From Apteryx mantelli (taxonomy: Eukaryota; Chordata; Aves; Apterygiformes; Apterygidae), in contig NC_089990.1 in assembly GCF_036417845.1 (NCBI RefSeq), positions 3,856,001 through 3,920,000 on the forward strand: a stretch of DNA of 64,000 bases. The letters are read 5' to 3'. The notes under the pieces were generated by a model, which was not told the origin of the DNA, did no database searches, and saw only the letters and a program-made list of their open reading frames with translations. A program made the translations under genes and the position numbers. Within the stretch, counting starts at the first letter, position 1. Every line of letters begins with the position of its first letter. Below are positions 350-54,899 of the stretch, piece after piece.

Positions 350-3300
350 GTAAACAAAGTCTTTGTCTTTTCTGTGTCCAGGCTGAGGTTCTTGGCTCTT
401 CCTTGGCCCAATGCAGGGCATTTTCCAGGTACTCTCATGACCTGAGGCCTCAGTTCCTGAAGTGGTTTGGGCTCTCTGCCAGGTTCTTTCTTGTCTACTG
501 TGATCCAACCCTCATTCCCAGAAATAAGGCTTCAGCTTCCCCCCACCCTGCAGCCAGTTGCCTCCTGCCACGCTGCTCTCCTGACCGCTCTGCCAATTTT
601 TGGCGAGGAAGGCCGGTTGAGTACACAGTAGCTTCCAGGATGGCTCTTGCCTGAATTTGTTAGCATAGCAGCCCATCCTCCCAAGGGCTGTGGAAGTGGT
701 GCACGTGCATAGGAGGGAGGCCCGTGATGGTCTGAGGGAGTGACAGCAGTGATGTCTCTGCAGATCCAGCATGAGGTCAGCAATGGGAACGTAGTGCATC
801 GTATCTGCAGTGATGCCTGCTTCACCAAGTTCCGGGCCACCAAGGGGCTGAAAACCAACTGCTGCGACAACTGTGGACTCTATATCTACAACAAGGGCTT
901 GCCCCTGGAGTACCTCTTCCATGAAGGCCAGCAAAAACGTTTCTGCAACTCCACCTGTCTCAACAGTTACAAGAAGGTGTGTGGAGTCAGCTGCCTGGGG
1001 CAGGGAGGTCTCCACGGGCACACATCTCCTTTGCTCGGTTTGGCGCAGGACACTGTGCAACAGCAGACAGCCTGAACCCTCTTGGCCTTTTGTTGCTGTC
1101 AAAACATCTTAAGAGATTGCTGTGGAGAAACTTTGAAACTTAAGCAAGTATACTCATTCTGCTGGGGCTGTGACCCAAGGGCCCATCTTTGACCCAAGCA
1201 CAGGTCAGACACTTGATAAGCTGGACTGTCCAGTGACGTTGGTACATGGAGTTAGCATGGGCTGGCTTCTTTTGGATGTCTACCCAGAGCTTGGCTGTAT
1301 CTGTTCCTCTGTGGCCTGAGTAGGCTTCACTGAACTGTCCTGATGGTATTGCCAGGTTCTGCGTGCCTGCCAAGTGTCCCCAAGAGTACGTGCATGCCCT
1401 TGACAATGTGAAGCTGAGGTGCCAATGAGCAAAGGCAGCTTTTCTCTACCGCCAGCTACCTGAACCTGTGGTCTATGAGCTTGGCTCTCACGTCAGGTGT
1501 CCATGTCCTCCCAGCAGGAGAGCCACCCTGCGGTGGATGCAGTGATGGGGTGGGGTATGAGGCAGGCGGGGGATAGGACCTCGCCGGGTGCGATGGGCTC
1601 TCTGACAGCTCTGTTCTGCTCTGCTTGCAGAAAAACACTCGGGTCTACCCATGCATGTGGTGCAAGACGCTGTGCAAGAACTTCGACATGCTGCCCAACG
1701 TGGATCGCAGTGGCAAGATGGGCCTGTTCTGCTCCATTTGCTGCACTACCTCCCACAAAGTGAAGCAGTCAGGCTTGGTTGGTAAGAGCACCCACGTACA
1801 GGGATTCAGTTAGCTTTCCACTCTAACTCCTTCTTTTGCTTGTGGTTGAGACTGGAAGGAAGGCATGTTGCTCACATGGGAAGGTGTCTGGGGAGGAGTC
1901 CAGGGAGATAAGTGGAAAGATATTTGGAGAGGGAGGCACCCTTGCAGCACATAATTATTCTAATGCTGAGGGGTGGTGTCTGTTGAGAATGCAGGAAGCA
2001 ATGGTAGTGCTGTACTGTGCTGGCATTGCCCTTTCCGCTACATGGAGCACTGGGGTGTCCAGGAGTGGGAATGGTCTCTGCTGACTGGTGCAAGTATTGC
2101 AGGCTGTTTTGTCCAAATTCCTGTAGAGCCAGGGTCACTTCTTTGAGCCACTCTGCTCTCCATCCATGTTTAACGTTTCTGTCCTAGCAGAACTTGGTGC
2201 TCTTAGTTTCCTGGAGTTCTTGTCCCTTCCTTTCTGGTTATAGCTTGACAGACTGAGGATGAGTGAGTAGCCTACATGCCATCCTCAGAATCCAGTCCCA
2301 CGTCCTGTGCTGCTGCCCTCACCGATTCCTGTCTGTTTCATCAGGTCCCCCTAGACCCTGCAGCTTCTGCAGAAAGAGTTTATCTGAACCCTGCTATTAC
2401 AACAAGACAGACCGGGTTGTCTACCAGTTCTGCAGCCCCAGCTGCTGGACCAAATTCCAGGTACTGAAATATCCTTCATGCTGGGCTGGGCCCTAGAGCC
2501 TCCTGCCTCTTTTCACACTTGGCACAGGCTGCAGGAAGGTCTCTGCTGGAGCACCTGAGTTCCAGTGCTCGTAGCTGCCAATTATTCACTCTTGGCCTTA
2601 CCTCCCCTCCCCTCAGCTGGGATAAGCCTGGCTGTAGCTCTCTCCTGTCTATCAGCTTATACCCAGCGGGAGTGCTGTACAGAGCTGTGTTGCATGAGCG
2701 GTTGTGGGATACAGTGGCCTTACATGGGCACAAGCCTCGCAAAGCACAGTGGGCACCCGCTAGCATGGTGGAAAGGAGCAGAGCTGCCCTCTGAGCCAGG
2801 GATCACCAAGGAACAAAAATCTCCCAGAACATGTCTAGAAATTTAAAATCAGCAGGCCTGGATACATCACATCTAGTAGTCCTTAAAGGCTTGGCTGACG
2901 GTTTTTATCTTCTGGTGTAAAGTTTTAGCATATATGAAGTCTTCATGGTATTCAAAGGCAATTTAAAGAACAAAGCAACAAGCAGAAGGACCCAGGAAAC
3001 TTAGGCCAGGACATGCATTGGGCAACTGAGAAAACCTGCAGAATCTAGAGGTAGAGATTTAGTTAAGGGCAGTTGCAGTGTTTTGGGTTTTTTTTTGTTT
3101 TGGGAGGTTGTTTTTTGTTTTTATTTTCTTTTTTTAATCCTTGATGTAATCCTTTGCTGAGATCACAAATCATGTTGGTAAGGGTAGCTGAAGAGTTGTT
3201 ACAGCTGTAGACCTTCTTAAGGCACTTGAATTATTGCCACGTAAAAGCAGCATTATAAAGTATGAGAAAAGCCATGCACAACCTGGATTAGGAACTGTCT

Positions 3301-6300
3301 TATTGACAAATCTCAGGACACACTTGTGAAAGAAACCCTTGGAGGGAGTATTTCAGGATGGCTTCTTGGGGATCAGTATTAAGCCCAAAGAGTTCAACAG
3401 CTTCATCAGCAATCTGGAAATAAAGTCAGCATAAGTGTGCTAAAAATTTTGCGGATGAAACAAAAACTAGCGGAGTGTTAACTCATGTTGAGATCAGGAC
3501 AGTCATAAAAAGCAGTTGGATTGCTTGACCAGATTGGCTCCTCGTAACAGGCACTTAAGTACAGGTCAGTGCAAGATCCTACATCAGCCTTACTCAAGTA
3601 ATGTGGGGGTGTAAGGCCCATAAAGTAAGGATTTTGAAAAGGCTCTGGGATTAAAGCAGATAAGCCATTCAGCATGAGCTCCCCATCTTAAAACTATAGC
3701 AGAAAGGATTAGTTAAATTATTGGAAGTACTAGCAGGAGAGCAGGGAATTAAAGTTTGGGGGCCAGGGAGAAAAAGGACTGCTGAGAATGTTGAACAGAT
3801 GGGAAGGATAGTCATCTGATGTCCACATTATTTTTAATGTTGAAGAAAAATTGGAAGTGTGCTGAAAAAAGCCACAAAAATCATTTTGGGGCTTGAAAAA
3901 TGCGGTATACTTGCAGAGCACCTTATCAAAGGTTATCAGAAACAAAACCAAGAAGATGACTCTATTAATAAATCTATCACTGGGGACAAGACACCAAGTG
4001 CTAAATGACACTAAAACTAGCAGAGGAAGGTGAGATGAGAACAACTGCTTGAATTCTGAAGTTATGTTACCCTGAAATTAGAAACCAGGCACATGTGCTT
4101 CAAGAGCTTTTAGAGAAAGTCTAAGGAAAGATAGCAGAGTCCCCATCTCCTGGTGTTTTCAAATCCAGAGAGCTGGCAATCTGAAAGCTTGCTTACCTGA
4201 CAAGGCTTGAACCCAGTACCCTTGCAAGCAAAGTGGAATTGCCCAGGCCTCTGTTAGCCAGGAGCTTGGTGCACAATCTGATGGACTGACTCTGAGCCAC
4301 TGACCACGGGAGCAAGGGCAGTGAGGGCTGTGAGCGGTGGAGGAGGCAGGGTGAGCAGCAGCAGCGGTGCAGAATAGGTGCTCCTTGAGCTCCGTACACT
4401 CCCTCCATGCACTGTCTTTGTATTCTGCAGCGCACCAGCCCAGAAGGTGGGATCCACCTGAACTGCCATTACTGCCACAACCTTTTCAGCGGGAAGCCGG
4501 AGATCCTAGACTGGCAGGTGAGACCTTTTCCCCAGGGGCGTGTTGAGGCTGAGGGCAACCCTGGGGAGGACTGCAGAGCTGCTTCCTTTCCCGGTTCAAG
4601 GGTTAGAGCTCCTTCTGCACCAGCGCTTTGAACTGCTTAGCTATAGAGATGTGGCTGGAAACCATGCCCTCAGCATGATGTCATGTTCAGCAGGAGGTCA
4701 GCAGGGCAGAGCTAGGGCAGGAGGAAACCTCTTCTGCTAAGCTGCATGCCAGGAGAGCTGGGGACTTGGAGACAGTCTCCTCAACCCCACAGTCTTGCTC
4801 CTGCTGCGCCAGCAAGCTTTGGGACCTCCTGCCAGCTTGGCTGACCTGGCGACGGTCTCTTTGGCAGGACAAAGTGTATCAGTTCTGCTGCAAGGACTGC
4901 TGTGAGGACTTCAAGCGGCTGCGTGGGGTAGTGTCTCAGTGTGAGCACTGCAAGCAGGAGAAGCTGCTGCATGAGAAGATCCGTTTCTCTGGGGTGGAGA
5001 AGAACTTCTGCAGCGAAGGTACTTGGGGAAGGCATGGGAGAGGCAGAGCGCCCCTGCCAGCCCATGCTGGGGGAGGAGAAGAGAGCATGGAGTGGAACAG
5101 AGGGGAGACTGGCCAGGCCCTGGGGCAAGAGCCTCACCATGCAGTGAAGGGAGGATTGTCGTGGGGATGGCTTGCTGTCCAGCCAGGCCCTAGGGCAAGA
5201 TCTTTACCGTTCATTGTGTCCTTGGGGAGGGCTTTCTCACAGCTTTTCTCTCTCTGGGGGCTGGGGAGACAGCAGGTGGCAGCTCCGCTCCTCCTGTCAT
5301 CATGCACTTCTACGCTCTTGCGTCTGGGCTGGCCTGACCTGGCCTTGCCCTGCCTGCTGGGTTCCTGCACACAGGAGGTTGGAGTCAGACTCTTCCTAGA
5401 AGCATGGAGGTGAGAGATGGCAAGTCCCCATGAGGTCCCATCTTATCCCAGCCCCAGGGGCCAGTGCTGGATTGTTCCCTACAGTGTGTTGCGTGTGCTC
5501 TGTTGTCTCCGCAGACCTGGATTCTGGTCATGTTTGGGTCAGGGAGGCCCCCAGTTCATCCTGGGAAGGTTTCACTCCTATTGTTTCTCCGCAGGGTGTG
5601 TGCTTCTTTACAAACAGGATTTCACCAAGAACCTGGGCCTGTGCTGCATCACCTGCACCTACTGTTCTCAGACCTGCCAGCGGGCGGTCACCGAGCAGCT
5701 GGAGGGCAGCACCTGGGACTTCTGTAGTGAAGACTGCAAAAGCAAATACTTGCTCTGGTACTTCAAGGTCAGTATTGGCACTGGCAGCTTGTGCTAAGTG
5801 CTGTGGTGGGCACGGCACCCAGATAAGTGGGCATTGCACTGACGAAGTTCGCACTGCTGGAGTCTGGCTGGCACTGCTGCGGAGAACCTGGCACTGCTGG
5901 AGTCCTGCCTGGCAATGACGGGACACTGCTACGGGGAAGCTCACGTAGCTGGAGTCCCCAGCTGATCCTGCCAGAGCACTGCACTGAGGAAGCTCACAGT
6001 GCTGGATCCGCGGCTAGTGCTGCTGTGAGAAGTTCGCACCGCTGGAGTCCCCGGCTGGCACTGGCAGGGCACTGCTGTGGGGAAGCTCACAGCACCTTGC
6101 CATGTGCACCTTTCACTGGAGAGTTGTGTTGCACTCGGAGGGGGTGTGGTTAGTTACTCGTTGTTTCTCTCCTGCTGATGCGGGCTTTAGGCAGCTCGGT
6201 GCCATGCCTGCAAGCGTCAGGGGAAGCTGCTGGAAACCATCCACTGGCGAGGGCAAATCAAACACTTCTGCAACCAGCAGTGTCTGCTGCGATTTTACAA

Positions 6301-9300
6301 TCAACAGAACCAGCCCAACCTGGACACGCAGAAGGGGCCCGAGAGCCTGCTGAACAGTGAGTAGGAGGGAGGGAGGGGACCTGCATAGCTCAGTCCGAGA
6401 GACACAGGGAAGACCGAACAGCAAGGGGTGGAAGCTTCCTGCCTGGGACTGGATGAGACGCTAGGGAACAATCCTGCACTGGCCCCTGGGGGGGGAAAGG
6501 ACGGAGTGGGACCTAATGGGGCTTCTCCATCTCTAACGTCTATGGTTCTATGACACACAGGGCCCAGACGGGAGGAGCCGGTGCCAGCGTGCTGCCTGTA
6601 GCTCACACTCTTAGCGAGGATACTCAGGGATTTAATGGGCGACTCCATCCTCATGTTGCCAGCGGAGAGCTCGATTTACAGGGTTAGGGGACAGCGTGGT
6701 TTGGCATGATAATCCACCTGCAGCCCCACACCACCTCCGAGCTGTGACCTTCTCAGATCTCATAAGCTAAGCAGGATTGGGCCAGGTCAGTGCTTGGATG
6801 GGAGACATTCAAGGAAAACGCAGGGTGCTGCAGGAAGTGGTGTTGGTGATGCTGTAGGTGGGCTCTCCTCAGTCAGAGCTGAACCTGTAATGATCTTGAG
6901 GGAGCACTGAGCTGCTGGAGGCACTCTGTTTTGTGATGGTAGATTGAAGTCCTACCACTTATCCAAAGATCCCTGGCAGCTTTGGGGAGTTGCCAACCCC
7001 GTGTCCCGGATAACCCGATTCTGCATCTGTGGAGTTCCAGCTGGAGAGGAGATTTTCACTGCCTGTTGCCCCATTTCCTATCATTAACTTGAGCCAGTTG
7101 TTTATGGAAGATTGCAAAGTGCTTTGGGGTCCCTCAGGATGGAAGGTGCTCATAGTGACAGTGACAAGACATCGCTTGGCCCTCGGACACTGGCTTAGTC
7201 TCATTCTGCTTGGTCTTTCATAGGCCAGGGTCTTCTAGACAATCTGATCTGGTTAATAAGGTGCCCACAGCTTGTGGTGTGAATTGTTTGGTGTCTCAAG
7301 CTGTGACAGATACCGGTATTGCAGGCTCAGGGCTTTGCTGCCCCCCTGGAGTTCCACAAGGTCCAAAACCCTGGCTAGGATGGACCAAGGAGGGGAAACC
7401 AAGACAAGGACCTTCCATGAGAGATCCTGTTCCCAGTCTCCAGACCTTCTGGTTCCTCTCTTCTGACAGCAGTGGGCTAATTGCAAGATGGGGAAAGCAA
7501 AGGATGTCAGGACCGCTTAAAGAGCGAGGCAGAGCTGCTCTGCCAGAAGTAGCAGTTTCCCCCAGCCAGAGGAACCCTGGCCTACCATCCAAGAGCCATG
7601 CCGTGTAAATGCCGTGCGAGGCAACAGCCAGGCATGCTCGAGTTGTAGCACACTGGAGTGACCTGGATAAAGAACTGTTGGTTTCTGCTGGCACTGGGTG
7701 CCCAGAGGGAGAGTGCTTGACGGGGCACAGTGTCTTGCTGCCCAGTAGAGGACGAGGTGTTAAGTTTGTCTGTTCCTGTAGCTAGCCCAGTGATTCCACA
7801 GTCCTAGCCATGCTGTTGGATTTGTCCTCTTTGCTTTCAAGGCATATCAGATCTGGGGGACCTGTAACGCTGCTTTTGGGACACAGGCACAGCAAGCAAG
7901 CCGCTACCTGTTGAAGGAAGCATCTATTTCACACCTTTTGGCCATTGCCTCTTGGAGCCGTGGACCACAGGACTCTCTTAAGTACCCTCTCCACCACCAC
8001 GGATCGCAAGAATTCCCTGAGCGCCCCCTTCCACCACATTTCTGGAGACAGCTGAGAGCTTTTTTGTTTAGCGTGCGGGGCATTGCCCATCACTCTGCCA
8101 ACGAGGCCTTTGCGTGAGCCCTGTGAGCCAGAGGACTTCGAGGGCAGCCGAGGAGATGCCCTGCCGCAGTGGTGAGTGCTTGGCTGAGCACAAATTTCAG
8201 GCTGCTCCAGCAGCCATGGAGTTTTGTAAAAGCAGCATTGTAAGTGTTACTGATGGCGCTGGGCCCTCTGTGTGTCCTGGCACACCTGTCCCTTGTCTGT
8301 TGTGGGATGGCTGTGGACGTCCTTGTCCTAGGACCCATGACATGCTGGTCAGCTTGCAGTGAAAGGGTCCTGGGAGCCAGGGCCTGCTTACACAGAGAGG
8401 TTTTAGAAGAGCCAGCCCAGCGTACTGTGCAGGGGATTTTGGGGAGCAGCTCATCAGCATGTGGCATGGAATAAGTGCTGCCTGGTCCAGCCAGGGTCTC
8501 CTGTGGACCTGGCAGCAGACTTGCTAGCTCACAAGGGACTACCTGGTTTCAGCCCCATCTTGGGCAGAGCTGCTGATTACTTACTTCTTCTTTTGCTGCC
8601 AGTGGTTGCCTAAGACTTCATTCCTGTGACCGAGTGGCTGCTGCCAGCCTGGTGATCTTGAGACTGCTTGCTGGTGATAAAAGTGGCAGTTCCTTTAATG
8701 GGAACAGTGTCTGTGTAACAAGGTGATTGAGGAGCTTCTGCTGCAGAACTGTGCCCAAAGACTTCTGAGAGGAACTGGCTCTGCCCAGGGCTATTCAGCT
8801 GGAGAGGAGAGGGCCAGAAGTCAATAGTTGGTGCAGATGATGCTTCAACAGCTCCCGGCTGGTTTTGGCTTGAGAGCCAAGAACAAACTGCAGCTTGGAT
8901 GGAGGCCTGGATATGTAGCGCATGGAGCTCTGTTGAGGAAGATCTTCTTGCCCACAGTCTTAAACCCTTGGCTTGTGGGACACTGAACTTTACTTTTGAT
9001 TCCACTGCAGCAGAGACTCTGCTCGTACCCCCACAGCCTGTCTTTCCCCATTCAAGTCATTGATGGTTTTTGTCTAGGCATGCTGCCTATCCACTTTGAA
9101 CTGGTCATGGGGACATCTTGGACCCATTGACAGAGTTGCAGATGCTGTAGCTGAGTGCCCAGCTGCAGGCCAGGGAGCTTTCTTGGACTGGCACTTATCT
9201 GTCCTCACCCACCTGTAGCAGTCACCAAGTGAATCCTGCTGTGCCTTTGTTTGCTCAAGGACTGTCCTGCATTTCCTCAGGACAGCGGATATCTGCGTAG

Positions 9301-12300
9301 TGCAGATGACTTTAGGTTGGTCCTTTGGGAGTCTGGGTCTTACCTGTGAAGAGCCTATCGCTAGGAGATGTGGAGGGACCTGCCACTTCCTTTGGGTGTT
9401 AAGGCCTGCTGCTTTCTTTGCAGGTGTCTCCTTCATGCATGGCCCATGGTTAGTCAGTGCTAGAGAAGGCAGTTCTTTCTCCCAGCCGCATGGGTAACCA
9501 GGGCTCACAGGACCCTTGGATAAAGGTGCAGCAGCCCGTCTGTGAGATGGGTGCAGGTTCTTTGCAGACCGAGCAAGCTGGAATCATCTGAGCCCGGATG
9601 ATACCATTATCACAGAGACTAGGGTCTCTGCCACGCGCACCTTTTACCTGCCGGTGATCTGCCCTTTCCTTAGGGGGAATGGACTGTGTTGCCAGTGCTG
9701 TGGCAAAGCTGTGTCTGTGCTTTCTGGGGTATCTCGTAGCACTGCTGCTAGCTCTGTCACCTTCTTCCTAGGGATCTCGAAGCACTTTGCCAAGATATTT
9801 GTCGCAGGGAGATGGAGGCACGGGGAGGGGCCATGGCTCGGTACAGCAAGCCAGTAGGCAGAGCTGGGAATAGAGCCCTGGATTCCTCTCTCTACAAGGG
9901 GCTGGGATTTCTCCTGACCTGCTGTGATGGGGATGGGGTGGACAGTAGGGGAGCACAAAATGACATGGGAATGACTTGATTTTGGAGTTCTAGTGTCTTC
10001 TGAGCTGCTAGGACTAGAGATTTTGGAATGACTAACTGTTCCTGGAGTGGCCCAGGACCAGTTTCTGGAGAGCCTGTCCCTGCCCTCTGGCCTGTGGCTG
10101 CTGCCATCTCCAGTCCCAGCTGTGGGACCTGTTAGCCTAGGAGCTCTCTAACTAAGAGTCATTGCTTTCTCTTACAGGTCAGACTTCTGAGCCAAAACCA
10201 CCCGCCTCTTCCCCACAGAAGGCAGAGACTAACATGGTAAGGCCTGTTCGAGGTAGGAGTTCTCAGGATAGCGCAGAGGGGTGTCCCCAAAAGAGGATGT
10301 TTGCCGTTCCCCAGGGAGAATTTGTTCTCTTACAGCCTATGTGTTTTAAGATGGTGGTGGCCTGGGCAGTGGGAGCTGAGAGGGGCTGCTATGGAGGGCA
10401 GCATGAGCATATCTCCTGCCAAGGGGGAGAATAACCATTCCCCAGGAATCAGACATGAGCACCAGAGCAGTCTGCCGCTGTGGCGTTGTCCCATCCTTGC
10501 ACAGTGCTCCCCCGTGCCTGGACACGGGGTCACTGTCCCTCTGCGTTCCCCTCTGTCCCGTGGGGTGGGAGCGACTGGTGCCAGACTCCCTGCTGGCTGT
10601 TGCAGGACTGCTGCAGGGCTTGCTGGTTGCCAGGATCAGCTTGGCAGTCCTTTGGCCAGATCTGACCGTGGGAGCATGCGGGCCTGGGAGCACTGAGCAA
10701 GTCTCGGACCAGAGCCTGTGCACTGGGGACTGCCAAGCTCTGGGAAGCGCTTTGGCCTAAGGTCTGGGATTGTCTCTAGCTGCACCCGCAGTTGGGAAGA
10801 GGTGGCACTGCCTCTCCTGGACACCAACCTGTTGCTTTCTGGATTTCCTCAGTTGTCGGCGAAGACCTCCTCAGCCCAGATGTCTCCAGCTGCGCCGCCT
10901 CCCCCGCCCCCTCCAGTTCCAGCCACCCCTCGGAAGAACAAAGCTGCTATGTGTAAACCACTGATGCAGAACCGGGGCGTTTCCTGCAAGATAGAAATGA
11001 AGTCCAAAGGATGTCAGACAGGTAGGGAGACGAGACGCATCTCTGCTGGATTACAGCTGTGTTTCTGTTGGAGAGGCAGGCAGCATGTCCGTGCTCCAGA
11101 CTGAGCGCGAGTTCAGCTTGAAATGCTCTACAGCACCCCTGGGTGTTTGGCACCATGCTGAGGAGCGTCCGGGCAGCGCAGTGCACGCGCTGCAGGGCTA
11201 GATGTAGGCAGCCCGTTCCCGTCAGCGGCCAAAGGAGAACTGCAGAGAGCACTGCAGCGTTATCCTGCTTCCAGGCAACCTTTCTCCTCTTCTTGCATGC
11301 GGGGCAGCTCCTCTTTCTCTGGAGGTCGTCAGCTTGCCTGAGGGGCCGTCTGCCGAGCAAGTTCCACCGTGTAGCTGCTCTTGGGCATGTGTGTAGCCTG
11401 TAGCATATGCAAGGGAGCTAGACCTCTCGAAGGGGCAGGGCTTGCGCCTCTGGCTAAAGGCAAGCCTTTCCTGTTGCCGGGGTGCGTTTGGCTTGCTGCT
11501 GCAGCTCTGCCTGTAAGCTACGGCAGCTGGTGGCTGGAAGGGCTGTGGCACTGGACAGCCGTACGGGCATGGCAGTGCGCAGCCGGATTGGGTGGAGGAG
11601 CTGTTGGGAGCAAGCTCACTGACATACTTTTGCTCTTGTCAGAGGCTGACTGGAAGCCCCAGGTGATTGTGTTGCCAATCCCCGTCCCGATCTTCGTGCC
11701 TGTGCCTATGCATATGTACTGCCAGAAAGTACCTGTGCCTTTCTCCATGCCTGTCCCGGTAAGCAACACGCTCCACCTGCTCCTGTTCTCTGTTACTGTC
11801 TTGACCCTGCCGTGCTGCAGCCTCTCTTTGCTTCTCTGTCCGTCCTTTTCCTCTGCCTCTGCTTTTACAGCAGCCAGCTGTGCCAAAACCCCTTGTGGGC
11901 ACAGCCCATGTCTGATCTCTGCCTGGTGTGCTGCTGTCAACAGGTGCCTGTGCCAATGTTCTTGCCCACCACACTGGAGAGCACAGATAAGATAGTGGAG
12001 ACCATTGAGGAGCTGAAGGTGAAGATCCCTTCCAACCCGCTGGAGGCTGACATCCTGGCCATGGCTGAGATGATTGCGGAGGCTGAGGAACTAGACAAGG
12101 CCTCCTCAGACCTGTGCGGTAGGTTCTGCCATGATTTGGTCTGGCCCAACAGTGGGGATCACGCGGGGTTTGCCCACCCCTGGAGCCAGACCATCTGCCC
12201 TTATTGCCGCTCCTCTAAAAGCCTTCGAAAGGCAGCAGCAAAGAGCAAGTGCTAGCCTGCTGTTGAGGCACCAGGGAGCAAGTGCCGCAGCAGGTAGCGG

Positions 12301-15300
12301 TGTCTGCCACTGCCCCTTTCAGAGGTGCCAGTGCTGTGGCACACATGCAGCACCATTAGTTTATTCACGTGGCTTTTCAGGCTCTGACTTAAAATGGAGC
12401 TGCTCAGCAAGGAGACTGGGAATCTTGACCTCACACATCTTTCTGGTTGGGGGCTGCCTTCCCCAAGCCCCAATAGGCTGTAGCTGGGGAGAGGACAAAG
12501 GACCAATGTCTTACTGTCCGGGGAAAGCTGGACAGTGCAGCCATCATGGGACTGCTGTGTGGGGTTGCTCTGAGCACAGGACAGTGCCACACAGAGCCTG
12601 ACTTTGTTTTCTAGCTGTCACAGGGAAAACAGCCAGAAGGATTTCTTTAAAGTTGAGTTTCTCGATCTGCTTTTGCATTGCAGACCTGGTGAGTAACCAG
12701 AGTGCAGAAGGACTCCTGGAGGACTGTGATCTATTTGGGCCAGCACGGGATGATGTGTTGGCTATGGCTGTCAAGATGGCAAACGTCCTCGATGAGCCTG
12801 GCCAGGACCTGGAGGCTGACTTCCCTAAGAGTAAGAGCTCGGTGAACTAGGCATGCAGGGCTGCTTGTGCTGCAGTGGGCTCTTCCTGCTGCCCTTGGTC
12901 CACCTTTGCCAGCAGCATTAAGAGCTGCACGCTGTGAACTCCCTCCCCAGGCCCTCTGAGTGACCAGGTTTGAGGCCAGGAACTGAGAATCTGGCAGGTG
13001 ATTGCTCACAGCAGTGGGTAGGAGATCACGGCTTTTGAACAAGTCTGTATTTGCCTAGACTAACTGACCTGCTGTGGATACATTTCTGCAGAGAAAAGGG
13101 AATGGGAAGCTGACTTAAATATCACAAAGAGCAGGGCAGAGGTGCTGGCATGCTTATGGGTGATTCCAGGGGATCCAGCGAAGCCTGAGAGAGACCTGAA
13201 CAGAGCAGAACATCTGGGAGATGGCGGGATTGCTGTGCATGTCCTTCAGAGGGCAGAAAATGGAAAGGAAGGGCAGGAACAAGCAGGAACACAGCAGTGC
13301 TGAGGCAGGATGCTAGCAGCGAAGGACAGAGAATTGGGATGCTTGTGCCAGGCTGTCCCCGGTGCTGGCAAACTGTCAGAAGGGGGAATTTGGGGCTCTG
13401 GTTAGTCTAAAAAAGCTTAGCAGCTCTGGCAAGTGATGCTGTTTCTTTTGTTGGGCTGTGGCTAAAAGTTCATGCCAGGCATGGGTGGAGGGTGTGAAGT
13501 GGTGGGTTGCTTGTTCTCTCCTCATCCTGCTGTAAGAAGCAGGTGAGAGAGGTCCAGGACAGAGCTGTAACCTGGCTTAGACTCCTGCCTGCCTCTTATC
13601 TCTGCCGGGGACAGAATGAGATGTCTTGACTGAGCCCTTTTGCTTGTGTTTCTTGTCAGACCCGCTAGACATCAACCCCAGCGTGGATTTCCTCTTTGAC
13701 TGTGGGCTGGTGGGGCCAGAAGATGTGTCCACAGAGCAAGACCTGCCTCGTGCTGTCCGAAAGGTGAGCTCTTAGTCAGTGCTGCCTGCTCAGAGCTCCG
13801 TGGGCTTGGAGCTGGAGCTGGTATCTGGGAAGTACTCCAAGATGAAGTGTGCTAGAGGCTGTGGTGTGCTGAGGAGGTTGTGCCCTCTCCCTTCTGGGCA
13901 TGCCTGGACCATGGGCCTCTCCTTGAAAGGAAATGATACTTGCCTGTTACTTTGGAGGGGCCTTGAACGCCACAGGCCACGTGAGAGCCAGGCTCTTCAG
14001 CTGTGGTCCTCGTAACTAATGGACCTTGTTGGGTCGGCTGTCAGCAGAAGGCTGCCTGGGGGCATGGACGCAAACGCACTGAGAGGGAGCTGGCTGTCAG
14101 CAGGTTCGAGGGGTGGCCAGGACTCTTGCATCTGTCCCAGGTTACATGCCCAGCCTCACAGTACACTTCTCTGCAGGGGCAGAAGCGCCTGGTGCTCACT
14201 GAGAGCTGTTCCCGGGACTCAATGAGCAGCCAGCCCAGCTGCACAGCGCTGAATTACTCGTATGGTGTGAACGCCTGGAAGTCCTGGGTGCAAGCCAAGT
14301 ACGCAGGGGGAGAGACCAGCAAGGGAGAGGAGCTGCGCTTTGGTCGTAAGTGCCCTGTCTGGATGCGGTGGAGTGGCAGAAGCTTCCCTGCAGTCAGGGC
14401 TTGGTGTGTTGAGGTGCTTCCCGGCCTTGCAGGCTGCTGACTGAGGCTGCCTTGCTTGCTTCCACAGCCAAGCCCATGAGGATCAAGGAAGACATCCTGG
14501 CCTGCACAGCTGCTGAGCTCAACTATGGCCTGGCCCAGTTTGTCAAGGAAATAACACGGCCCAACGGGGAACGCTATGAGCCAGACAGCATATATTACCT
14601 CTGCCTCGGCATCCAGCAGGTGAGGGAGGGCTTGCTGCTCTCGAGTCCTCTGCAGCCAAACCTGGGGGTCAGATATGGCAAGGGGAGCTAATACTCTTTA
14701 TTCTGCTTTCTGGGGACCCAGAGAGGTTCGTTAGCCTCTGATCTTCGGTGCCTCACCCCAAGATAGGAACCCACCTGGTTTGGTCTCTGTTCCCAGCCCT
14801 AGCAGACAGGGTGGCTGCTATTCCCTGGCCTTGCACCTTTCATGCACACCCTTAAGGAGGGCTGGGAGATCTCCCCAAAGTCAGTCCTTTCTTCAGCACC
14901 AAGTCCGCTTTGTCAGGCTTTGAGCCTGCCCCTGCAGCGCTGACTGTGCAGGGAGGGCTCTGGGTGCACCCTGGGCTCTCTGGGGAGGGTTTGTGCCCCA
15001 GGTGCTGCCACGTCTCTCTTGACTGTGTGTTCTGTCCTTTCTAGTACCTGCTCGAGAACAATCGTATGGTGAATATATTTACAGACCTTTACTACCTGAC
15101 CTTCGTGCAGGAGCTGAACAAGTCCCTGAGTGGCTGGCAACCCACAATCTTACCAAACAGTATGTGTCTGCAGATTACCTTGAGTCACCAAACACACACA
15201 CACAGTTTCTGCTCCTAGCCTTGGCTCCTCCAGTCTGATTGTGCTCCCCCAGCCTCTGCTCGCTTCCTTGGCATGGAGACCGCAGTCCTGCTGTGCGTTG

Positions 15301-17314
15301 GGGACATAATGAACTATTTCTTACCCGCACCAGCAGCAGAGCCAGTCTGGTTTACACCTCAGCAGCTTCTCTTGCCCAGAGTCAAGGTGGCTGGGAACAG
15401 AGCACGGCTGCTTTGTGCCCTGGTGCAGCTTGAATCTTTACAACACTTCACAGCCATGTCTCAGCCTTTTGGCAAAGAGGACACCAAGCCAGGAGGCCTG
15501 ACGGCCCATGCCGGCTTTGCGTTCCCAGCCCGTGGGTGGGTGAGCCCTGCGCACTGTGCGGGCAGTGTTGGCCAGGGCTGCTGTGCTGCTGTCTCCCTTG
15601 CGAGCAAATTACCTTAGAGCTCTGCAGAGGCTGTTTGGGATGCCGTGATCTGGGCTCCCTCTCCCAAGGTGTCTTGTCCGTGGTTAGTCCAGCCTCTCTT
15701 CTGCATGCTGGCTGTTCCAAGTGGACGCCTTTGCTTCAAACCTGTGTGTCTAGGCAGGAGCTGGCCATGTCTGTCCTGCCTGCTGCTCTTCCTTTATCTC
15801 CCACTGAATGTGGTGGAGCACTGACCTGGAGTTCACTCTGTGGCCGTCTGTACAGATAAGCTGTTAGCATTGATCTGGGTTGTGGCCCGTGGTTTGGCCA
15901 CGCTCTGGGATGGTTCATGGCTGGGCAGAACCAACATTAGCTCCGCAATGGCTCTGGAGAAGTAGCCTCCTAGAGCCGTTTTTCTTGGCTCCACAACACT
16001 GCCCTGTGCACACAAAGTGAGTGTTGTGAAGTACAGCTCGCTTGCACTGCTGAGCTGAGCTTGTCTGCCCGGGGTGACGGGAGAGCTCCAGACCCACATT
16101 CCCCAGATGTATGGAGCTGGATCCCAGGCAGGCACATCATTCTCCTAGTTCCCTCCTGAAAGAGCCTGGAGCCTGCACAAGGCCACTGTGAGTGTGACCT
16201 GATTGCTCCTCTGTGTGTTGCAGACGCAGTTTTCTCACGTGTTGAGGAGGAGCACCTCTGGGAGTGCAAGCAGCTGGGTGTTTACTCACCCTTTGTGCTC
16301 CTCAACACCCTCATGTTCTTCAACACCAAGTTCTTTGGGCTGCAGACAGCAGAGGAGCACATGCAGCTGTCTTTCACCAATGTGGTGCGCCAGTCCCGCA
16401 AGTGCAACACAGCCCGTGGCATGGCGAAGGTGGTGAGCATCCGCTACTACGCTCCTGCCAAGCAGAAGAAAGGCCGAGGTAGGGTCTGCCTGAGCACCTG
16501 TCTCTCCTTCCCCCTGCCTCCCCCGTCAGGTCCCAACCGTGATCCTGCTCTGTCCCCCTCTGCAGATGGTGGTTCTGGAAAGCGGAAGCGTGAGGAGGAG
16601 GTGCCAATCCTGGAGCAGCGGGAGAACAGGATGAACCCTCTCCGATGCCCTGTCAAGTTCTATGAATTTTATCTCTCCAAATGGTGAGGCTTTCTTCGGA
16701 GACGGGACGCATGTCCTTTGGGGGCTACCTTGCAGTTCCAGTGGGACCCTGGAGAGTGGCTGCTGCTTTCCGCACATGCAGCATTAGTCCTCGAGTGTAA
16801 AGCCTTGCCTGGGCTCTGTACTGCTTGCAGCCCGTGGTTGAGGAAACAGTTCTCTGGCTCCTTCCACTCCTCGCCTCTCATGAGGCACGCAGAGGCATCG
16901 AGTGTGCATCTTGGTGCTTGGCTGCCTAAGGAGTTTGGTCCTGAGCGAGGAGCTCCAGGCCTTGTCCTGCTGGAGGCTGAGACTGACAACCGAAGCAAGT
17001 CTGAGCCCTCCTTGATAGCCGGGAGGGCGTGCTAGGCTTTCCAAGGCCCTGGTGGGGTGGGAGGCCCCAAGCGCCGTGCTGCTCTCCCAGGACTCACCCT
17101 CCTCTCTCCTCACAGCCCCGAGAGCCTGCGGAACCGGAACGACATCTTCTACCTGCAGCCCGAGCGGTCGTGCATCGCCGAGTCGCCCCTCTGGTACTCG
17201 GTCATCCCCATGGACAGGAGCATGCTGGAGAGCATGCTGAACCGCATCCTGGCCGTGAGGGAGATCTACGAGGAGCACAGCCGCCTCGGGGGCCTCGAGG
17301 ATGACATGGACTGA
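172..17314 (+). CDS. ZMYM3: ZMYM3 gene (partial; last 20 coding exons), zinc finger MYM-type protein 3
   Basis: The 20 exons join in frame to about 1003 residues plus stop, against about 1370 for the human protein, so roughly the first 370 residues lie outside. In order the protein shows a run of MYM-type zinc fingers (repeated CxxC and FCxxxC pairs, 172-6356), a proline-rich linker (10178-11758), an acidic segment with KIVETIEELKVKIPSNP (11944-13763) and the conserved C-terminal domain shared by the ZMYM2/3/4 and QRICH1 family (14177-17314) with a basic KRKREEE patch. The family is nuclear: ZMYM3 associates with LSD1/CoREST/HDAC complexes and, in human cells, with BRCA1-A at damaged chromatin. 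All junctions are GT-AG and phase-consistent, with no frameshift or premature stop. Identity is very firm from near-verbatim matches such as CPVKFYEFYLSK. ZMYM2 and ZMYM4 are less likely, and the GJB1 and NLGN3 neighbours agree with ZMYM3. Confidence 0.98.
764..976 (+). CDS. ZMYM3: ZMYM3 exon: MYM fingers
   Basis: This 213-nt exon of 71 whole codons encodes HEVSNGNVVHRICSDACF, then a complete finger from CCDNC to FCNSTCLNSY. Donor GTGTGT starts at 977. Confidence 0.95.
1631..1781 (+). CDS. ZMYM3: ZMYM3 exon: MYM finger
   Basis: This 151-nt exon has acceptor TTGCAG before 1631 and donor GTAAGA at 1782. It encodes one finger, from YPCMWCKTLCKNF to GLFCSICCTTSHK. Confidence 0.95.
2345..2460 (+). 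CDS. ZMYM3: ZMYM3 exon: MYM finger
   Basis: This 116-nt exon encodes PRPCSFCRKSLSEPCYY to YQFCSPSCWTKFQ, a complete MYM finger. The acceptor is ATCAG and the donor is GTACTG at 2461. Confidence 0.95.
2835..4165 (+). mobile_element. Old CR1-type LINE fragment in a ZMYM3 intron
   Basis: The A/T-richer stretch retains scattered CR1 landmarks in order: an opening like aaatcagcaggcctggataca, a central 'ttgggg atcagtatt' region, a 'gcggatgaaaca' remnant of the usual gcagatgacac, and a 3' part with 'tggtgttttcaaatccagag'. No reverse-transcriptase reading frame survives. The outer limits are approximate. Confidence 0.6.
4431..4517 (+). CDS. ZMYM3: ZMYM3 exon: first half of a MYM finger
   Basis: This 87-nt exon encodes RTSPEGGIHLNCHYCHNLF and GKPEILDWQ. 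The second half of this finger is on the next exon. Confidence 0.95.
4868..5018 (+). CDS. ZMYM3: ZMYM3 exon: MYM fingers
   Basis: This 151-nt exon closes one finger (YQFCCKDCCEDFKRLRG) and carries most of the next, from SQCEHCKQEKLLHEK to KNFCSE. Confidence 0.95.
5595..5767 (+). CDS. ZMYM3: ZMYM3 exon: MYM finger
   Basis: This 173-nt exon encodes GCVLLYKQDF, CCITCTYCSQTCQRAVTEQL and WDFCSEDCKSKYLLWYFK. It ends on a codon boundary before GTCAGT. Confidence 0.95.
5800..6095. repeat. Degenerate tandem repeat, roughly 60-bp spacing
   Basis: Units built from 'gctggagtccccggctggcac', 'agagcactgc' and 'ggggaagctcac' recur four to five times with indels. It lies wholly within an intron, and apparent reading frames across it follow the repeat. 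Confidence 0.7.
6191..6356 (+). CDS. ZMYM3: ZMYM3 exon: last MYM finger
   Basis: This 166-nt exon starts AARCHACKRQGKLLETIHW and closes with HFCNQQCLLRFYNQQNQPN. The acceptor is CTTTAG. The in-frame GCAG just after the junction is not used, because the conserved A-A-R residues are retained. Confidence 0.94.
6718..7170 (+). mobile_element. 5S-rRNA-derived SINE (SINE3 type)
   Basis: The head at about 6718-6840 clearly resembles 5S rRNA. It keeps 'aagctaagcaggattgggcc', 'gtgcttggatgggagac' and 'gggtgctg', which cover the internal pol III promoter. The body ends near 7165 in 'aaagtgctttgggg...ggaaggtgctc', a tail style common to LINE-mobilised vertebrate SINEs. The rRNA part is diverged and flanked by non-rDNA, so this is a retroposon and not a 5S gene. 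The family name is not assigned. Confidence 0.75.
9763..9905 (-). mobile_element. MIR/CORE-type tRNA-derived SINE fragment
   Basis: On the + strand the sequence reads as the complement of a MIR-type element: 'gatggaggcacggggagg', then 'acagcaagccagtaggcagagctgggaatagagccctgg'-like DNA split by small changes. This is the familiar tRNA-related half seen in reptile and mammal genomes. Confidence 0.65.
10178..10236 (+). CDS. ZMYM3: ZMYM3 exon: linker
   Basis: This short 59-nt exon encodes SQTSEPKPPASSPQKAETNM. It matches the start of the mammalian Ser/Pro-rich linker and lies after a 3.8-kb intron. It is the least conserved exon of the window's ZMYM3. Confidence 0.88.
10853..11021 (+). CDS. ZMYM3: ZMYM3 exon: proline-rich linker
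   Basis: This 169-nt exon encodes a poly-proline run followed by ATPRKNKAAMCKPLMQNRG and SCKIEMKSKGCQT, both typical of ZMYM3. Confidence 0.95.
11643..11758 (+). CDS. ZMYM3: ZMYM3 exon: PVP-repeat segment
   Basis: This 116-nt exon encodes WKPQVIVLPIPVPIFVPVPM and CQKVPVPFSMPVP, a characteristic valine/proline repeat. Donor GTAAGC starts at 11759. Confidence 0.96.
11944..12118 (+). CDS. ZMYM3: ZMYM3 exon: conserved acidic segment
   Basis: This 175-nt exon encodes FLPTTLESTDKIVETIEELK and the acidic helix-prone ILAMAEMIAEAEELDKASSD. Confidence 0.97.
12684..12830 (+). CDS. ZMYM3: ZMYM3 exon: acidic segment
   Basis: This 147-nt exon encodes LVSNQSAEGLLEDCDLFGPA and AVKMANVLDEPGQDLEADF. The donor is GTAAGA at 12831. 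Confidence 0.97.
13660..13763 (+). CDS. ZMYM3: ZMYM3 exon: acidic segment end
   Basis: This 104-nt exon encodes PLDINPSVDFLFDCGLVGPE and STEQDLPRAVRK. Confidence 0.97.
14177..14345 (+). CDS. ZMYM3: ZMYM3 exon: start of the C-terminal domain
   Basis: This 169-nt exon encodes GQKRLVLTESCSRDSMSSQ and YSYGVNAWKSWVQAKYAGGE, the start of the conserved C-terminal domain. Confidence 0.97.
14468..14619 (+). CDS. ZMYM3: ZMYM3 exon: C-terminal domain
   Basis: This 152-nt exon encodes KPMRIKEDILACTAAELNYG and RPNGERYEPDSIYYLCLGIQ. Confidence 0.98.
15045..15159 (+). CDS. ZMYM3: ZMYM3 exon: C-terminal domain
   Basis: This 115-nt exon encodes YLLENNRMVNIFTDLYYLTF and VQELNKSLSGWQPTILPN. Acceptor CTAG is at 15041-15044. 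Confidence 0.98.
16224..16478 (+). CDS. ZMYM3: ZMYM3 exon: C-terminal domain
   Basis: This 255-nt exon encodes VFSRVEEEHLWECKQLGVYS, MFFNTKFFGLQTAEEHMQLS and VVSIRYYAPAKQKKGR. Confidence 0.98.
16566..16683 (+). CDS. ZMYM3: ZMYM3 exon: basic patch and C-terminal domain
   Basis: This 118-nt exon encodes GSGKRKREEEVPILEQREN and CPVKFYEFYLSK. The KRKR stretch could act as a nuclear localisation signal. Confidence 0.98.
17116..17314 (+). CDS. ZMYM3: ZMYM3 terminal coding exon
   Basis: This 199-nt exon encodes PESLRNRNDIFYLQPERSC, WYSVIPMDRSMLESMLNRI and a slightly variable end GLEDDMD before TGA at 17312-17314. Confidence 0.98.
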
Positions 17315-18460: not shown

Positions 18461-18544
18461 AGCCCCTGCTTTCTCCCGAGGGCGAGGCGCTGCCCTGGGT
18501 GCGGGAGCCGGGAGCGGCGGTGCAGGCGCCCACCGTGCCCTCCC

Positions 18545-19749: not shown

Positions 19750-19755
19750 TTTATT
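19750..19755 (-). terminator. Poly(A) signal AATAAA for the alpha-type connexin
   Basis: On the + strand it reads TTTATT. It lies about 105 bp past the connexin stop codon and is the only AATAAA or ATTAAA between that stop and the minisatellite. It supports a transcribed gene rather than a dead copy. Confidence 0.75.
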
Positions 19756-19860: not shown

Positions 19861-20601
19861 TCACACCGCCAGGACCCCCGGGCGCCGCTTCCCGCGGGGC
19901 TGAGCGCCCGGCCGGCGCTTGGTGGTGGCCAGGTGGTAGATCTCGGCGAGGTTGAGCAGCAGGGAGACGCAGGCCACCGCCAGCATGAAGAGGAGGAAGA
20001 CGGTCTTCTCGGTGGGCCGGGAGACGTAGCAGTTGACGGCGTTGGGGCAGGGCCAGCGGCGGCAGGCGTAGAGGGGCTCCAGCTCGAAGCCGTACAGGGC
20101 GCACTGGCCCGCCATGAAGCCCACCTCCAGCAGCGCCTTGGAGACCACGCTGCACACGTAGGTCCTCAGGACGGCGCCCCGCATGCGGCCTCGGCCACGC
20201 ACGTCCCGGCCGGGGCACTGCCGCCACCGCCGCCGCGGGGTCCCTCCGCCGGCCCGTGCCGCCGCCGCCGCCGCGCGCTGCCGGACCTTCTCCTCCTGGC
20301 GCAGCAGGTGCAGGACGTGGCCCAGGTAGACCAGGCTGGGCGTGGAGACGAAGATGATCTGCAGCACCCAGAAGCGGAGGTGGGAGATGGGGAAGGCGCT
20401 GTCGTAGCAGGCGCTCTGGCAGCCGGGCTGCTGCGTGTCGCAGGCGAAGCCGGCCGGCTCGTCGCCCCAGGCGCGCTCGGCGGCCGCCCCCAGCACCAGG
20501 ATGCGGAAGACGAAGAGGACGGACAGCCACACCTGCCCCACCGCCGTCGAGTGCTCCTGCGCGCCCTCCAGCAGCCGCCCCAGCAGGCTCCAGTCCCCCA
20601 T
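19861..20601 (-). CDS. Alpha-type connexin, GJA3 (Cx46)-like, short C-tail, 246 aa
   Basis: This is a gap-junction subunit with four membrane segments, expected in the plasma membrane. It starts [20 protein letters not shown]. The first extracellular loop keeps the three cysteines ([12 protein letters not shown]) and the second keeps CRRWPC and CPNAVNC with SRPTEK after it. Segments [18 protein letters not shown] and [20 protein letters not shown] are closest, from memory, to GJA3, with GJA8, GJA4 and GJA5 less similar. The cytoplasmic loop is Ala/Arg-rich. After the fourth membrane segment only about 22 residues follow, ending GVLAV, whereas GJA3 proteins run to about 400 or more. The single coding exon is normal for connexins. 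It lies 382 bp downstream of GJB1 on the same strand and converges on ZMYM3. All structural residues look intact, so function is likely. Orthology is not settled. Confidence 0.9.
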
Positions 20602-20983
20602 GGCGCCGCGGCGAAGCCCCGAAGACGCCCGCCGAAGCCCCGGTGCTCCCCGGCCGCGCCGACAGCTCCGTCCGTCTGTCTGTCCGTCCGGCAGCGGGCG
20701 AGGGGTTAGTTGGGAGCGCGCCGGCCGCGGGTCCCATTGGCTCGCTTGGCGAGCGGCGGATGACGCGGCCGCTGGGAAAAACCTTTTTCCCTTCTATTTT
20801 TGGTCTGGGCGCTTTTTCTAAAGATACTCGGGGCTGCAGGGGACGGCGCCGGGGGAGGCAGTGGGGGCAGCGCGAGCCCTCAGCCGCCGCTCGGCGCCGC
20901 CACCGACCCCGCCGGTCCCCGACGGCGAGGAGAAAGGAGGGAGGCAGCGCCGGGGGGAGGCAGCTTTAGCGGCGGCGGCGGCT
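20602..20983 (-). promoter_or_regulatory. Inter-connexin spacer with possible proximal promoter
   Basis: The 382-bp gap holds, on the - strand, a CCAAT box (20736-20740, about 135 bp before the connexin ATG) and an A/T element CCAAAAATAG (20794-20803) like a CArG or weak TATA site. There is no AATAAA or ATTAAA; the only weak variant is AATAGA at 20793-20798. It may hold the alpha connexin promoter and 5' UTR as well as the GJB1 3' UTR. Confidence 0.4.
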
Positions 20984-21823
20984 CTAGCAAGCCGAGCAGC
21001 GGTCGCCCTTCTCCTGCAGCCCGGGGTTGCGGCGCAGCATGTCCTTGAGGGAGCCGTCCTGCTCCGTCAGCAGCTGGTTGATCTCGTTCTGCTTGTACTC
21101 GGAGGAGAGCTTGTGGCCATAGAAGGAGCTCTTCCCCGACGGCGGGTTGGAGTCCGGCTGGCCGCGGCGGGCGCACGCCCGCACCACCAGGTACACCAGC
21201 TCTGCCATGTTGAGCACGATGCAGATGCCGGAGGTGACCAGCATGAAGACGGTGAAGATGGTCTTCTCGGTGGGCCGCGACACGAAGCAGTCGACCGTGT
21301 TGGGGCAAGGGTAGGCCTCGCACTTGACCAGCCGCACCATCTGGTAGCCCGGGTAGATCATGTAGAAGAGGTACATGAAGACGGCCTCGAAGAGCAGCCT
21401 GAACACCACGCTGCACACGTACGTCCACCACAGCGAGCCCGCGATGCGCATCTTGTGCTTCTTCACCTCCTCCAGGTGCTTGGCGTCGCCGTGCCCCGTC
21501 AGCACCAGCAGCTTCTTCTCCTGGTGCTGCTGGTAGGCCACGTGCATGGCCACGAGCAGGGCCGGCGTGGTGACCAGGATGAGCTGCAGGGCCCACAGCC
21601 GGATGTGCGAGATGGGGAAGAAGTGGTCGTAACAGACGCTGTTGCAGCCGGGCTGTTGCGTGTTGCAGGTGAAGGCCGACTTCTCGTCCCCCCAGACGCT
21701 CTCGGCCGCCACCACCAGCACCATTATCCGGAAGATGAAGATGACGGAGAGCCAGATGCGGCCGATGGCGGTGGAGTGGCGGTTCACGCCGCTCAGGACC
21801 GTGTAGAGGCCGGCCCAGTTCAT
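20984..21823 (-). CDS. GJB1: GJB1, gap junction beta-1 protein (connexin 32), 279 aa
   Basis: This connexin forms gap junctions in liver and in the non-compact myelin of Schwann cells and oligodendrocytes; loss in humans causes CMTX1 neuropathy. It starts [20 protein letters not shown]. Loop one has [12 protein letters not shown] and loop two has CEAYPC and [15 protein letters not shown]. The tail contains [20 protein letters not shown] and ends DRCSAC, including the C-terminal cysteine motif known to be prenylated in Cx32. Length is 279 against 283 in human. The entire frame is in one exon, and a splice acceptor (CCGCAG) lies 12 bp before the ATG, as in mammals. Its neighbours ZMYM3 and NLGN3 match human Xq13.1. 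Confidence 0.98.
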
Positions 21824-28141: not shown

Positions 28142-54014
<25,873 letters not shown>

Positions 54015-54054
54015 CGTCTGGGAGGAGCAGCACCAACATCCAGGCCTGAAGCTC
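54015..54054 (-). other. NLGN3: NLGN3 5' UTR segment after a predicted acceptor
   Basis: A candidate acceptor CCCTCGCCCCAG ends at 54055, 41 bp before the ATG. It implies a non-coding first exon farther right, as in mammals. Confidence 0.45.
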
Positions 54055-54899
54055 CTGGGGCGAGGGCTCAGGGCATCCCCATCACAGCAAGCCTCCGACC
54101 TGTCCACCGGGAAGAGCCAGATCCGTGGGGTAAGACAGCCAGGAATCAGCAACGCACAGCCCAGTCGCACCTTCAGCCGGGTGACCTAGGAGCACTGATC
54201 CAGAGAGAAGTGCAACTGCTCTTCAGAGCCTGCGAGCTGCCCACTGCTGTCCACCTTCGAAGGGCACGGCCCTGATGGGATTGCTGACACTGTGGAGAGA
54301 TGGAGGTAATTAACAGCAGACTCACTCTGGAAAGAGTCAAAGGACCTGCGGCACACACAGAGCCAGTGTCCCTGAGCAGGACACTGCTCGGACATGCTGC
54401 CGGGCCCTCCCGCCCCCCATCACCCTTTGCCTCTGCCTGTTCCACTACGCAAGTGGGCAGCTCCGGGAGCAGCAGCGACTCCACAGCCTGAAGGAACAGC
54501 TCAGAGGACAGCTGGAGCAAGCAGGGCATGAACGTTAAGGTGGTGGACCAGGCTTCCCCATGGGGCAGGTCCTACCTTGGGCAGGGCTGAGGGAGCAGAA
54601 GATGCTCACCTGCTAGTGGGGCAGGAGCCCCTGCTCAGCTGCAGGCGGGAGCACGCCAGGGAGAGGAGGAAGAGGACCCCTCATCCTGCAGACACCAGGG
54701 AAACACAGCTCGCTGGCCGGATCGCTCCTGGAGCAAAAGCCCAGGAGGCTGCAGGACCCCTGTGCCACACGCTGGACCCCGGCTGCGCTCATCAGGCCTG
54801 CGCGACCTTGAGAAGGACCTTGCGTTCACCTCCCCGAGGTGAGAGCCCAGACCGCGATGCCCGGAGGACACCCCGAGACGATACGCGAGACAACAAAGC

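What the first reader, a model, noticed from the sequence alone, without database searches (positions are those of the whole stretch)
19861..20601. Extra alpha-type connexin beside GJB1, with an unusually short C-tail
A complete connexin lies between ZMYM3 and GJB1, where I know of no gene in the human interval. It is closest to GJA3, which in mammals sits beside GJB2/GJB6. An alpha-beta connexin pair here mirrors those clusters, so it may be the missing alpha partner of GJB1 from the vertebrate genome duplications, lost in mammals. The tail of about 22 residues removes nearly all the regulatory region of Cx46.
Basis: partly seen in the sequence, partly recalled or inferred. Interest (0 to 1): 0.72.

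Follow-up and report, generated by a model that had tools for sequence, protein, structure and literature searches.

The report
Bird gja2, connexin neighbour of GJB1
This is an intact bird copy of gja2, a gap-junction gene that mammals lost and that sits beside the nerve-disease gene GJB1; the gene is already described in birds and fish, but this copy has an unusually short tail that seems to keep only its anchoring end.

Summary
Window 19861-20601 (minus strand) is an intact 246-residue connexin (Pfam Connexin, E 8e-91), 382 bp downstream of GJB1 on the same strand. It is not GJA3: this genome's own GJA3 lies on another contig beside two GJB2/GJB6-type genes, is 92% identical to mammalian GJA3 over core columns, but only 72% identical to this protein.

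The best identity is gja2 (teleost cx39.9). Published surveys call gja2 a GJA3-related gene of fishes and non-mammalian tetrapods except crocodiles, tightly linked to gjb1 in cartilaginous fishes.

I found this copy's anatomy in none of the listed papers. The tail is 22 residues, against 264 in its own GJA3, but ends in the same Leu-Ala-Val, so the middle rather than the end seems to be gone. The cytoplasmic loop carries charge +11. No AATAAA or ATTAAA separates it from GJB1. The tree is unresolved; expression and channel activity are untested.

The parts
19861..20601 (-). gja2-type connexin, single open coding frame, 246 aa plus stop
   Evidence: Pfam PF00029 E 8.2e-91; best PDB hit GJA3; whole-genome Connexin search row C13:3875927-3876595
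19864..19929 (-). 22-residue cytoplasmic tail, charge +7, no Ser or Tyr, two Thr
19864..19872 (-). terminal Leu-Ala-Val, same as the end of this genome's GJA3 (..RSDDLAV)
   Evidence: PDB GJA3 ends DLAI
20176..20304 (-). cytoplasmic loop, residues 100-142, 67% Gly/Ala/Arg/Pro, charge +11 (PDB GJA3 loop -1)
20032..20067 (-). E2 docking segment: residues 179 A, 187 N, 188 A, 190 N (human Cx46 R180, N188, T189, D191, matched by eye on the alignment)
   Evidence: roles of the Cx46 residues from PMC6487695 passages
19750..19755 (-). AATAAA starting at nt 106 past the connexin stop; the only AATAAA or ATTAAA in the 2.6 kb past the GJB1 stop
   Evidence: 1 of 1000 shuffles of the 300 nt past the stop holds one
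20733..20742 (-). CCAAT box, 141 nt before the ATG; the only ATG between GJB1 and the start codon lies inside this box
20794..20803 (-). CCAAAAATAG, one mismatch from the MEF2 and CArG consensus (weak; consensus recalled)
   Evidence: as good or better in 12 of 500 (MEF2) and 87 of 500 (CArG) shuffles
20676..20709 (-). possible splice acceptor for a 5'UTR intron (CTAAC ... ACAG), 74-78 nt before the ATG
   Evidence: consensus match only
20984..21823 (-). GJB1, 279 aa, 156 of 182 core columns identical to PDB GJB1
28142..54170 (-). NLGN3: open frames that hold coding exons at 28142-29083, 29362-30321 and 53430-54170 were tested
   Evidence: 29365-30321, neuroligin-3 first; COesterase in all three, the first at E 0.0062, below cut-off
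764..16687 (+). ZMYM3-type gene (MYM fingers, DUF3504), convergent with the connexin
   Evidence: the name ZMYM3 from gene order, recalled

Best explanation
The feature is a functional gja2 gene in a bird-like genome, the alpha connexin that stands beside GJB1 as GJA3 stands beside GJB2/GJB6. Shown: the intact reading frame, its place, and that it is neither GJA3 nor a close copy of it. Inferred: it makes a four-pass subunit, six of which form a membrane channel. Its tail has lost the long phosphorylated middle and keeps a PDZ-type end, so it should still be held in junction plaques by ZO-1-like scaffolds while lacking tail phosphorylation, somewhat like the naturally cleaved Cx46 of the lens core. 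It keeps the asparagine that Cx46 and Cx26 use for docking, so junctions with its neighbour GJB1 are possible. Expression in muscle is a guess from zebrafish.
For: Full connexin domain. Nearest GJA3: 136 of 182 core columns, against 121 of 182 for GJA8 and 107 of 180 for GJA1. Own GJA3 lies on C1 with two GJB2/GJB6-type genes within 50 kb, while the window is on C13. PDB GJA3 and own GJA3 agree at 175 of 191 core columns; this protein agrees with own GJA3 at 137 and with PDB GJA3 at 143. At the 16 columns where the two GJA3s differ it sides with the mammalian one at 8, with own GJA3 at 2 and with neither at 6, so it lacks most GJA3 states of its own lineage. Best ML topology puts it outside the two GJA3s (weak). 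The Connexin search gave 23 rows, which I read as 22 loci (two rows are halves of one gene; one row holds two stops); PMC7914757 reports 22 connexin genes in birds. PMC7914757: gja2 in non-mammalian tetrapods except crocodiles, tightly linked to gjb1 in chondrichthyans. PMC7066803 table: cx39.9 and gjb1 in adjacent rows with the same chromosome in nearly every species column that holds both. Duck: GJA3 is listed on chromosome 1 and ZMYM3, GJB1 on chromosome 10 (PMC12802297 passages). Terminal L-x-V/I: 6 of 18 own tails have it, among them GJA3 LAV, GJA8 LTV, GJA5 LSV and GJA1 LEI (names from best match or recall). AATAAA at nt 106 past the stop. The last residue matters for Cx46 and Cx50 plaques (PMC5267330 passages); 11 Cx46 phosphosites mapped by one mass-spectrometry study are all in the tail, and human Cx46 is cleaved between residues 238 and 251 in the lens (PMC9006113 passages).
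Against: No fish, amphibian or other bird gja2 sequence could be fetched, so orthology rests on place, distance and literature. One paper calls zebrafish cx39.9 the ortholog of human CX46 rather than a separate gene (PMC5318405 passage). The ML position is unresolved: cx+GJA3 61/64; cx+both GJA3 53/86, the two GJA3s together 34/28, and AU does not reject cx with own GJA3 alone, p 0.33 (with long-branch warnings). The 8 versus 2 site split is not significant on its own (two-sided sign test about 0.11, my arithmetic). It departs from 9 of 82 columns that five reference connexins share; leaving each reference out in turn gives GJA3 2 of 84, GJA8 2 of 84, GJB2 5 of 87, GJA1 9 of 91, GJB1 9 of 91. 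R180, T189 and D191 of Cx46 are all replaced. The GC-rich loop suggests weak constraint there. The LAV end could be chance: about 0.0015 by whole-protein composition, 0.0004 by tail composition; and of the alpha-like own tails L013 and L017 lack the motif. Against easy transfer from truncated Cx46: Cx46 cut at residue 251 is still blocked by acid in HeLa cells and truncated rat Cx46 hemichannels still respond to PKC; [quoted passage not shown] No expression data for this genome. A spliced extra tail exon is not excluded.
Confidence: 0.85

Rival explanations
1. A lineage-specific copy (retrocopy or segmental) of GJA3 that landed beside GJB1 and evolved fast.
For: Closest to GJA3; single coding frame, as a retrocopy would have, but GJA3's coding frame is also uninterrupted in this genome; AU test does not reject cx with own GJA3 alone, p 0.33.
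Against: 72% identity to own GJA3, below GJA3 versus GJA8 in the same genome (137 of 191 against 151 of 191); sides with mammalian GJA3 at 8 and own GJA3 at 2 of 16 differing columns; an alpha connexin beside gjb1 is already reported in cartilaginous fishes (PMC7914757) and on the same chromosomes in teleosts (PMC7066803).
Confidence: 0.05
2. A decaying gja2: frame still open but under weak constraint on the way to loss; gja2 is reported absent from crocodiles and has no mammalian members.
For: Long branch; Gly/Ala/Arg/Pro 37% against 21% in GJB1 next door at equal third-position GC; tail and loop 64-67% these four residues; substitutions at family-invariant sites.
Against: No stop or frameshift in 246 codons; all six cysteines and the terminal LAV kept; TM2 22 of 24 and TM1 17 of 20 identical to GJA3, though TM3 only 14 of 24; poly(A) signal and CCAAT box in place. 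Three of the odd invariant-site changes (D55, N190, Y192) are also in this genome's GJA5 (L014; name recalled), which I take to be an ordinary connexin.
Confidence: 0.2
3. The short tail is not the real end: splicing near the stop adds a longer tail from a downstream exon.
For: Some connexins have a spliced tail exon (recalled); no RNA data here.
Against: AATAAA 106 nt past the stop, where 1 of 1000 shuffles holds one; the tail already ends like GJA3; a minisatellite follows at 18539-19431.
Confidence: 0.07

Closest known systems
gja2 / cx39.9 of fishes and non-mammalian tetrapods (PMC7066803, PMC7914757)
   Same: GJA3-related alpha connexin linked to gjb1; reported from birds as a group
   Different: Teleost protein is named for 39.9 kDa; this one is 27.2 kDa with a 22-residue tail.
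GJA3 / Cx46 (own copy L011; PDB copy, sheep by recall)
   Same: 75% core identity to the PDB copy; 7 of 16 GJA3-specific columns shared; same terminal Leu-Ala-Val as the own copy
   Different: Different contig and neighbours; own GJA3 tail 264 residues and His where this has Asn at the E2 docking site; PDB GJA3 loop charge -1 against +11
Lens-core cleaved Cx46 (PMC9006113, PMC5267330 passages)
   Same: Similar total length (cut between residues 238 and 251), regulatory tail gone
   Different: Cleaved Cx46 must also lose the ZO-1 end (inference); here the end appears kept and the change is in the gene
GJA5 / Cx40 (own copy L014; name recalled)
   Same: Shares D55, N190 and Y192 in the extracellular loops
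   Different: His rather than Asn at the docking position; tail 135 residues

Membership tests
Connexin family (PF00029) | full-length connexin domain above cut-off | tested here: met
   304 bits against cut-off 31.3, profile 1-224 of 225
Connexin family (PF00029) | three cysteines in each extracellular loop, CX6CX3C and CX4CX5C | tested here: met
   one match of each pattern; CX4CX5C as the general E2 rule is stated in PMC7066803, CX6CX3C is recalled
Connexin family (PF00029) | forms hemichannels or gap junction channels | not testable with these tools
   needs expression; AlphaFold model has four long helices but mean pLDDT 53.7
gja2 orthogroup | GJA3-related alpha connexin, not GJA3 itself | tested here: met
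gja2 orthogroup | tight linkage to gjb1 | tested here: met
   382 bp apart, same strand
gja2 orthogroup | groups with fish and amphibian gja2 outside GJA3 in a tree | not testable with these tools
   no such sequences reachable; with own and reference connexins it falls outside GJA3 without support
gja2 orthogroup | long tail, as the 39.9 kDa of the teleost protein implies (not used to define the orthogroup) | tested here: not met
   27.2 kDa, 22-residue tail
GJA3 orthogroup | place beside GJB2/GJB6 | tested here: not met
   that place holds L011 on C1; the window is on C13
GJA3 orthogroup | about 90% core identity between amniote members | tested here: not met
   own versus PDB GJA3 175 of 191; this protein 137 and 143 of 191

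The most novel reading that the evidence does not exclude
A bird gja2 reduced to a minimal channel: tail middle deleted with the ZO-1 anchor kept, basic cytoplasmic face, an altered docking surface that keeps the Cx32-compatible asparagine, and no canonical poly(A) signal between it and GJB1, so that GJB1 and gja2 are made from one shared or read-through transcription unit as a co-regulated pair that docks with each other.
Probability: 0.12. Interest if true: 0.6.

Novelty: new member of a known kind. Interest (0 to 1): 0.28.

Why it matters
It shows that the alpha partner of GJB1 (the human X-linked Charcot-Marie-Tooth gene) survives in a bird-like genome with its frame intact, and gives a natural test of how much of an alpha connexin's tail is needed beyond its scaffold end. 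If the two genes share a transcript end, studies of GJB1 regulation in birds must take the neighbour into account. [quoted passage not shown] whether that locus is gja2 is not stated in the passage.

Tried and rejected
Gene conversion between the connexin and GJB1 (both read TYVCSVV in TM3, and share exact tracts of 17 and 18 nt): 67 of 91 shared residues (Met and Trp left out) use the same codon, 63.1 expected from codon usage, so no clear excess. Loss of docking from the changed invariant residues: I first read N55D and D-to-N in E2 as damage, but this genome's GJA5 (L014, name recalled) has the same residues, so I dropped it; Ser at position 63 also stands in both GJB1 rows. Relatives by scan: 3 stretches in viral contigs and 73 in genome contigs matched a pattern, none a relative. 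RNA families and tRNAs: none. Tail against the PDB: no hit. The AlphaFold model, from an alignment of two rows, is too weak (mean pLDDT 53.7), so no fold search was run. A protein search for further copies of this protein in the genome did not complete. Ten paper searches, all used; none of the papers listed is about a short-tailed gja2 as far as titles and abstract starts show, several lists were capped, and supplements were not readable. The species names sheep and human for PDB chains are recalled; the outputs give molecule names only.

Full report
What is there. The minus-strand frame 19861-20601 encodes a 246-residue, 27.2 kDa connexin that matches Pfam Connexin over almost its full length and is closest among PDB sequences to GJA3/Cx46. 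The region is extremely GC-rich, so long open frames occur on both strands and frame length is no evidence; the profile match, the six cysteines and the conserved transmembrane segments are.

Where it lies. GJB1 ends 382 bp upstream on the same strand, NLGN3 follows beyond GJB1, and a ZMYM3-type gene converges from the other side. The window is contig C13, 3856001-3920000, of a 1.50 Gb genome whose contig sizes look like a bird's (judgement). The whole-genome connexin search gave 23 rows, which I count as 22 loci; PMC7914757 gives 22 connexin genes for birds.

What it is. GJA3 itself is elsewhere: L011 on C1, 513 residues, within 50 kb of two GJB2/GJB6-type genes. Over 191 core columns, PDB (mammalian) and own GJA3 agree at 175, but this protein agrees with own GJA3 at only 137 and with PDB GJA3 at 143. 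Of the 16 columns where the two GJA3s differ it follows the mammalian one at 8, own GJA3 at 2 and neither at 6. That speaks against a recent copy of this genome's GJA3, though 8 to 2 is not significant alone. Two trees have GJA3 nearest but do not settle the order: 7 rows, and 23 rows, namely this protein, six reference or window sequences and 16 of the 19 other own loci that gave a connexin frame (L023, L024 and L026 were left out, and L028 gave no frame). The published description fits in the points I could test: gja2 is GJA3-related, kept in non-mammalian tetrapods except crocodiles, and tightly linked to gjb1 in chondrichthyans (PMC7914757, sections 7, 13 and 28 and passages; the teleost table and naming in PMC7066803, passages). 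One paper instead calls zebrafish cx39.9 the ortholog of human CX46 (PMC5318405 passage).

How it probably works. The tail is 22 residues. This tail has no serine or tyrosine and charge +7. Yet it ends Leu-Ala-Val, as own GJA3 does. Six of the 18 own tails end in Leu-x-Val/Ile (L009 GJA8, L011 GJA3, L014 GJA5, L016, L018 GJA1, L027), twelve do not, among them the alpha-like L013 and L017 (names from best match or recall). The chance of L-A-V/I is about 0.0015 by protein composition. The simplest reading is loss of the middle with the PDZ-type end kept. That end matters: removing the last residue of Cx50 abolishes plaques and that of Cx46 greatly reduces them (PMC5267330 passages). All 11 phosphosites mapped in one study of Cx46 are in its tail (PMC9006113 passages). 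So I infer a channel that is placed normally and is not regulated by tail phosphorylation. [quoted passage not shown]

Docking. In human Cx46, N188 bonds R180, T189 and D191 of the opposite subunit (PMC6487695 passages). At N188, R180, T189 and D191 this protein has N, A, A and N. Own GJA5 also has the D55, N190 and Y192 seen here, so these need not be damage. Own GJA3 has His at the N188 position. The surface is thus a mosaic, and partner choice cannot be predicted safely; contact with the window's GJB1, which has K, N, T and D there, is possible.

Expression signals. A CCAAT box lies 141 nt before the ATG and AATAAA starts 106 nt past the stop; no AATAAA or ATTAAA lies between GJB1's stop and this gene's ATG, only weak variants (AATAGA, AAAAAG). 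GJB1 may therefore end at the same signal, a testable idea. A MEF2/CArG-like site is weak (12 and 87 of 500 shuffles); it is mentioned because zebrafish gja2 is a skeletal-muscle gene (PMC9073686 passages; another paper ties it to the eye as well, PMC10017553 passages; the original Hirata 2012 paper is not held).

Verdict. A real gene, most likely bird gja2, already known as a kind. The short tail with a kept end is the part worth following; decay of the gene remains a serious rival.

Noticed in passing
L027 (G000 C28:1335486-1336052): A second short-tailed connexin in this genome: 24 residues after TM4, ending GDLTV; it looks like GJD3 (name recalled). Like gja2 it seems to keep the terminal L-x-V.
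   Followed up: partly
L011 (own GJA3): GJA3 of this genome reads PCPH in E2, with His where PDB GJA3 has the docking Asn.
   Followed up: partly
20602-20983: No AATAAA or ATTAAA between GJB1's stop and the gja2 ATG; the first one lies past gja2.
   Followed up: partly
18539-19431: GTGCAC-rich minisatellite (spacings of 15, 44, 59 and 72 nt among others) downstream of the connexin; its minus strand lies in a repeat-rich open frame of 375 aa.
   Followed up: no
about 3300-3700: Decayed CR1-like reverse-transcriptase remnant between ZMYM3-type exons, judged by eye from broken frames.
   Followed up: no
63512-63631: 18-bp GC-rich tandem repeat, 6.7 copies, 97% matches.
   Followed up: no
L028 (G000 C3:97243044-97243640): Weak connexin match with two in-frame stops, E 6.7e-8; perhaps the intron-bearing GJE1 or a pseudogene (guess).
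   Followed up: no
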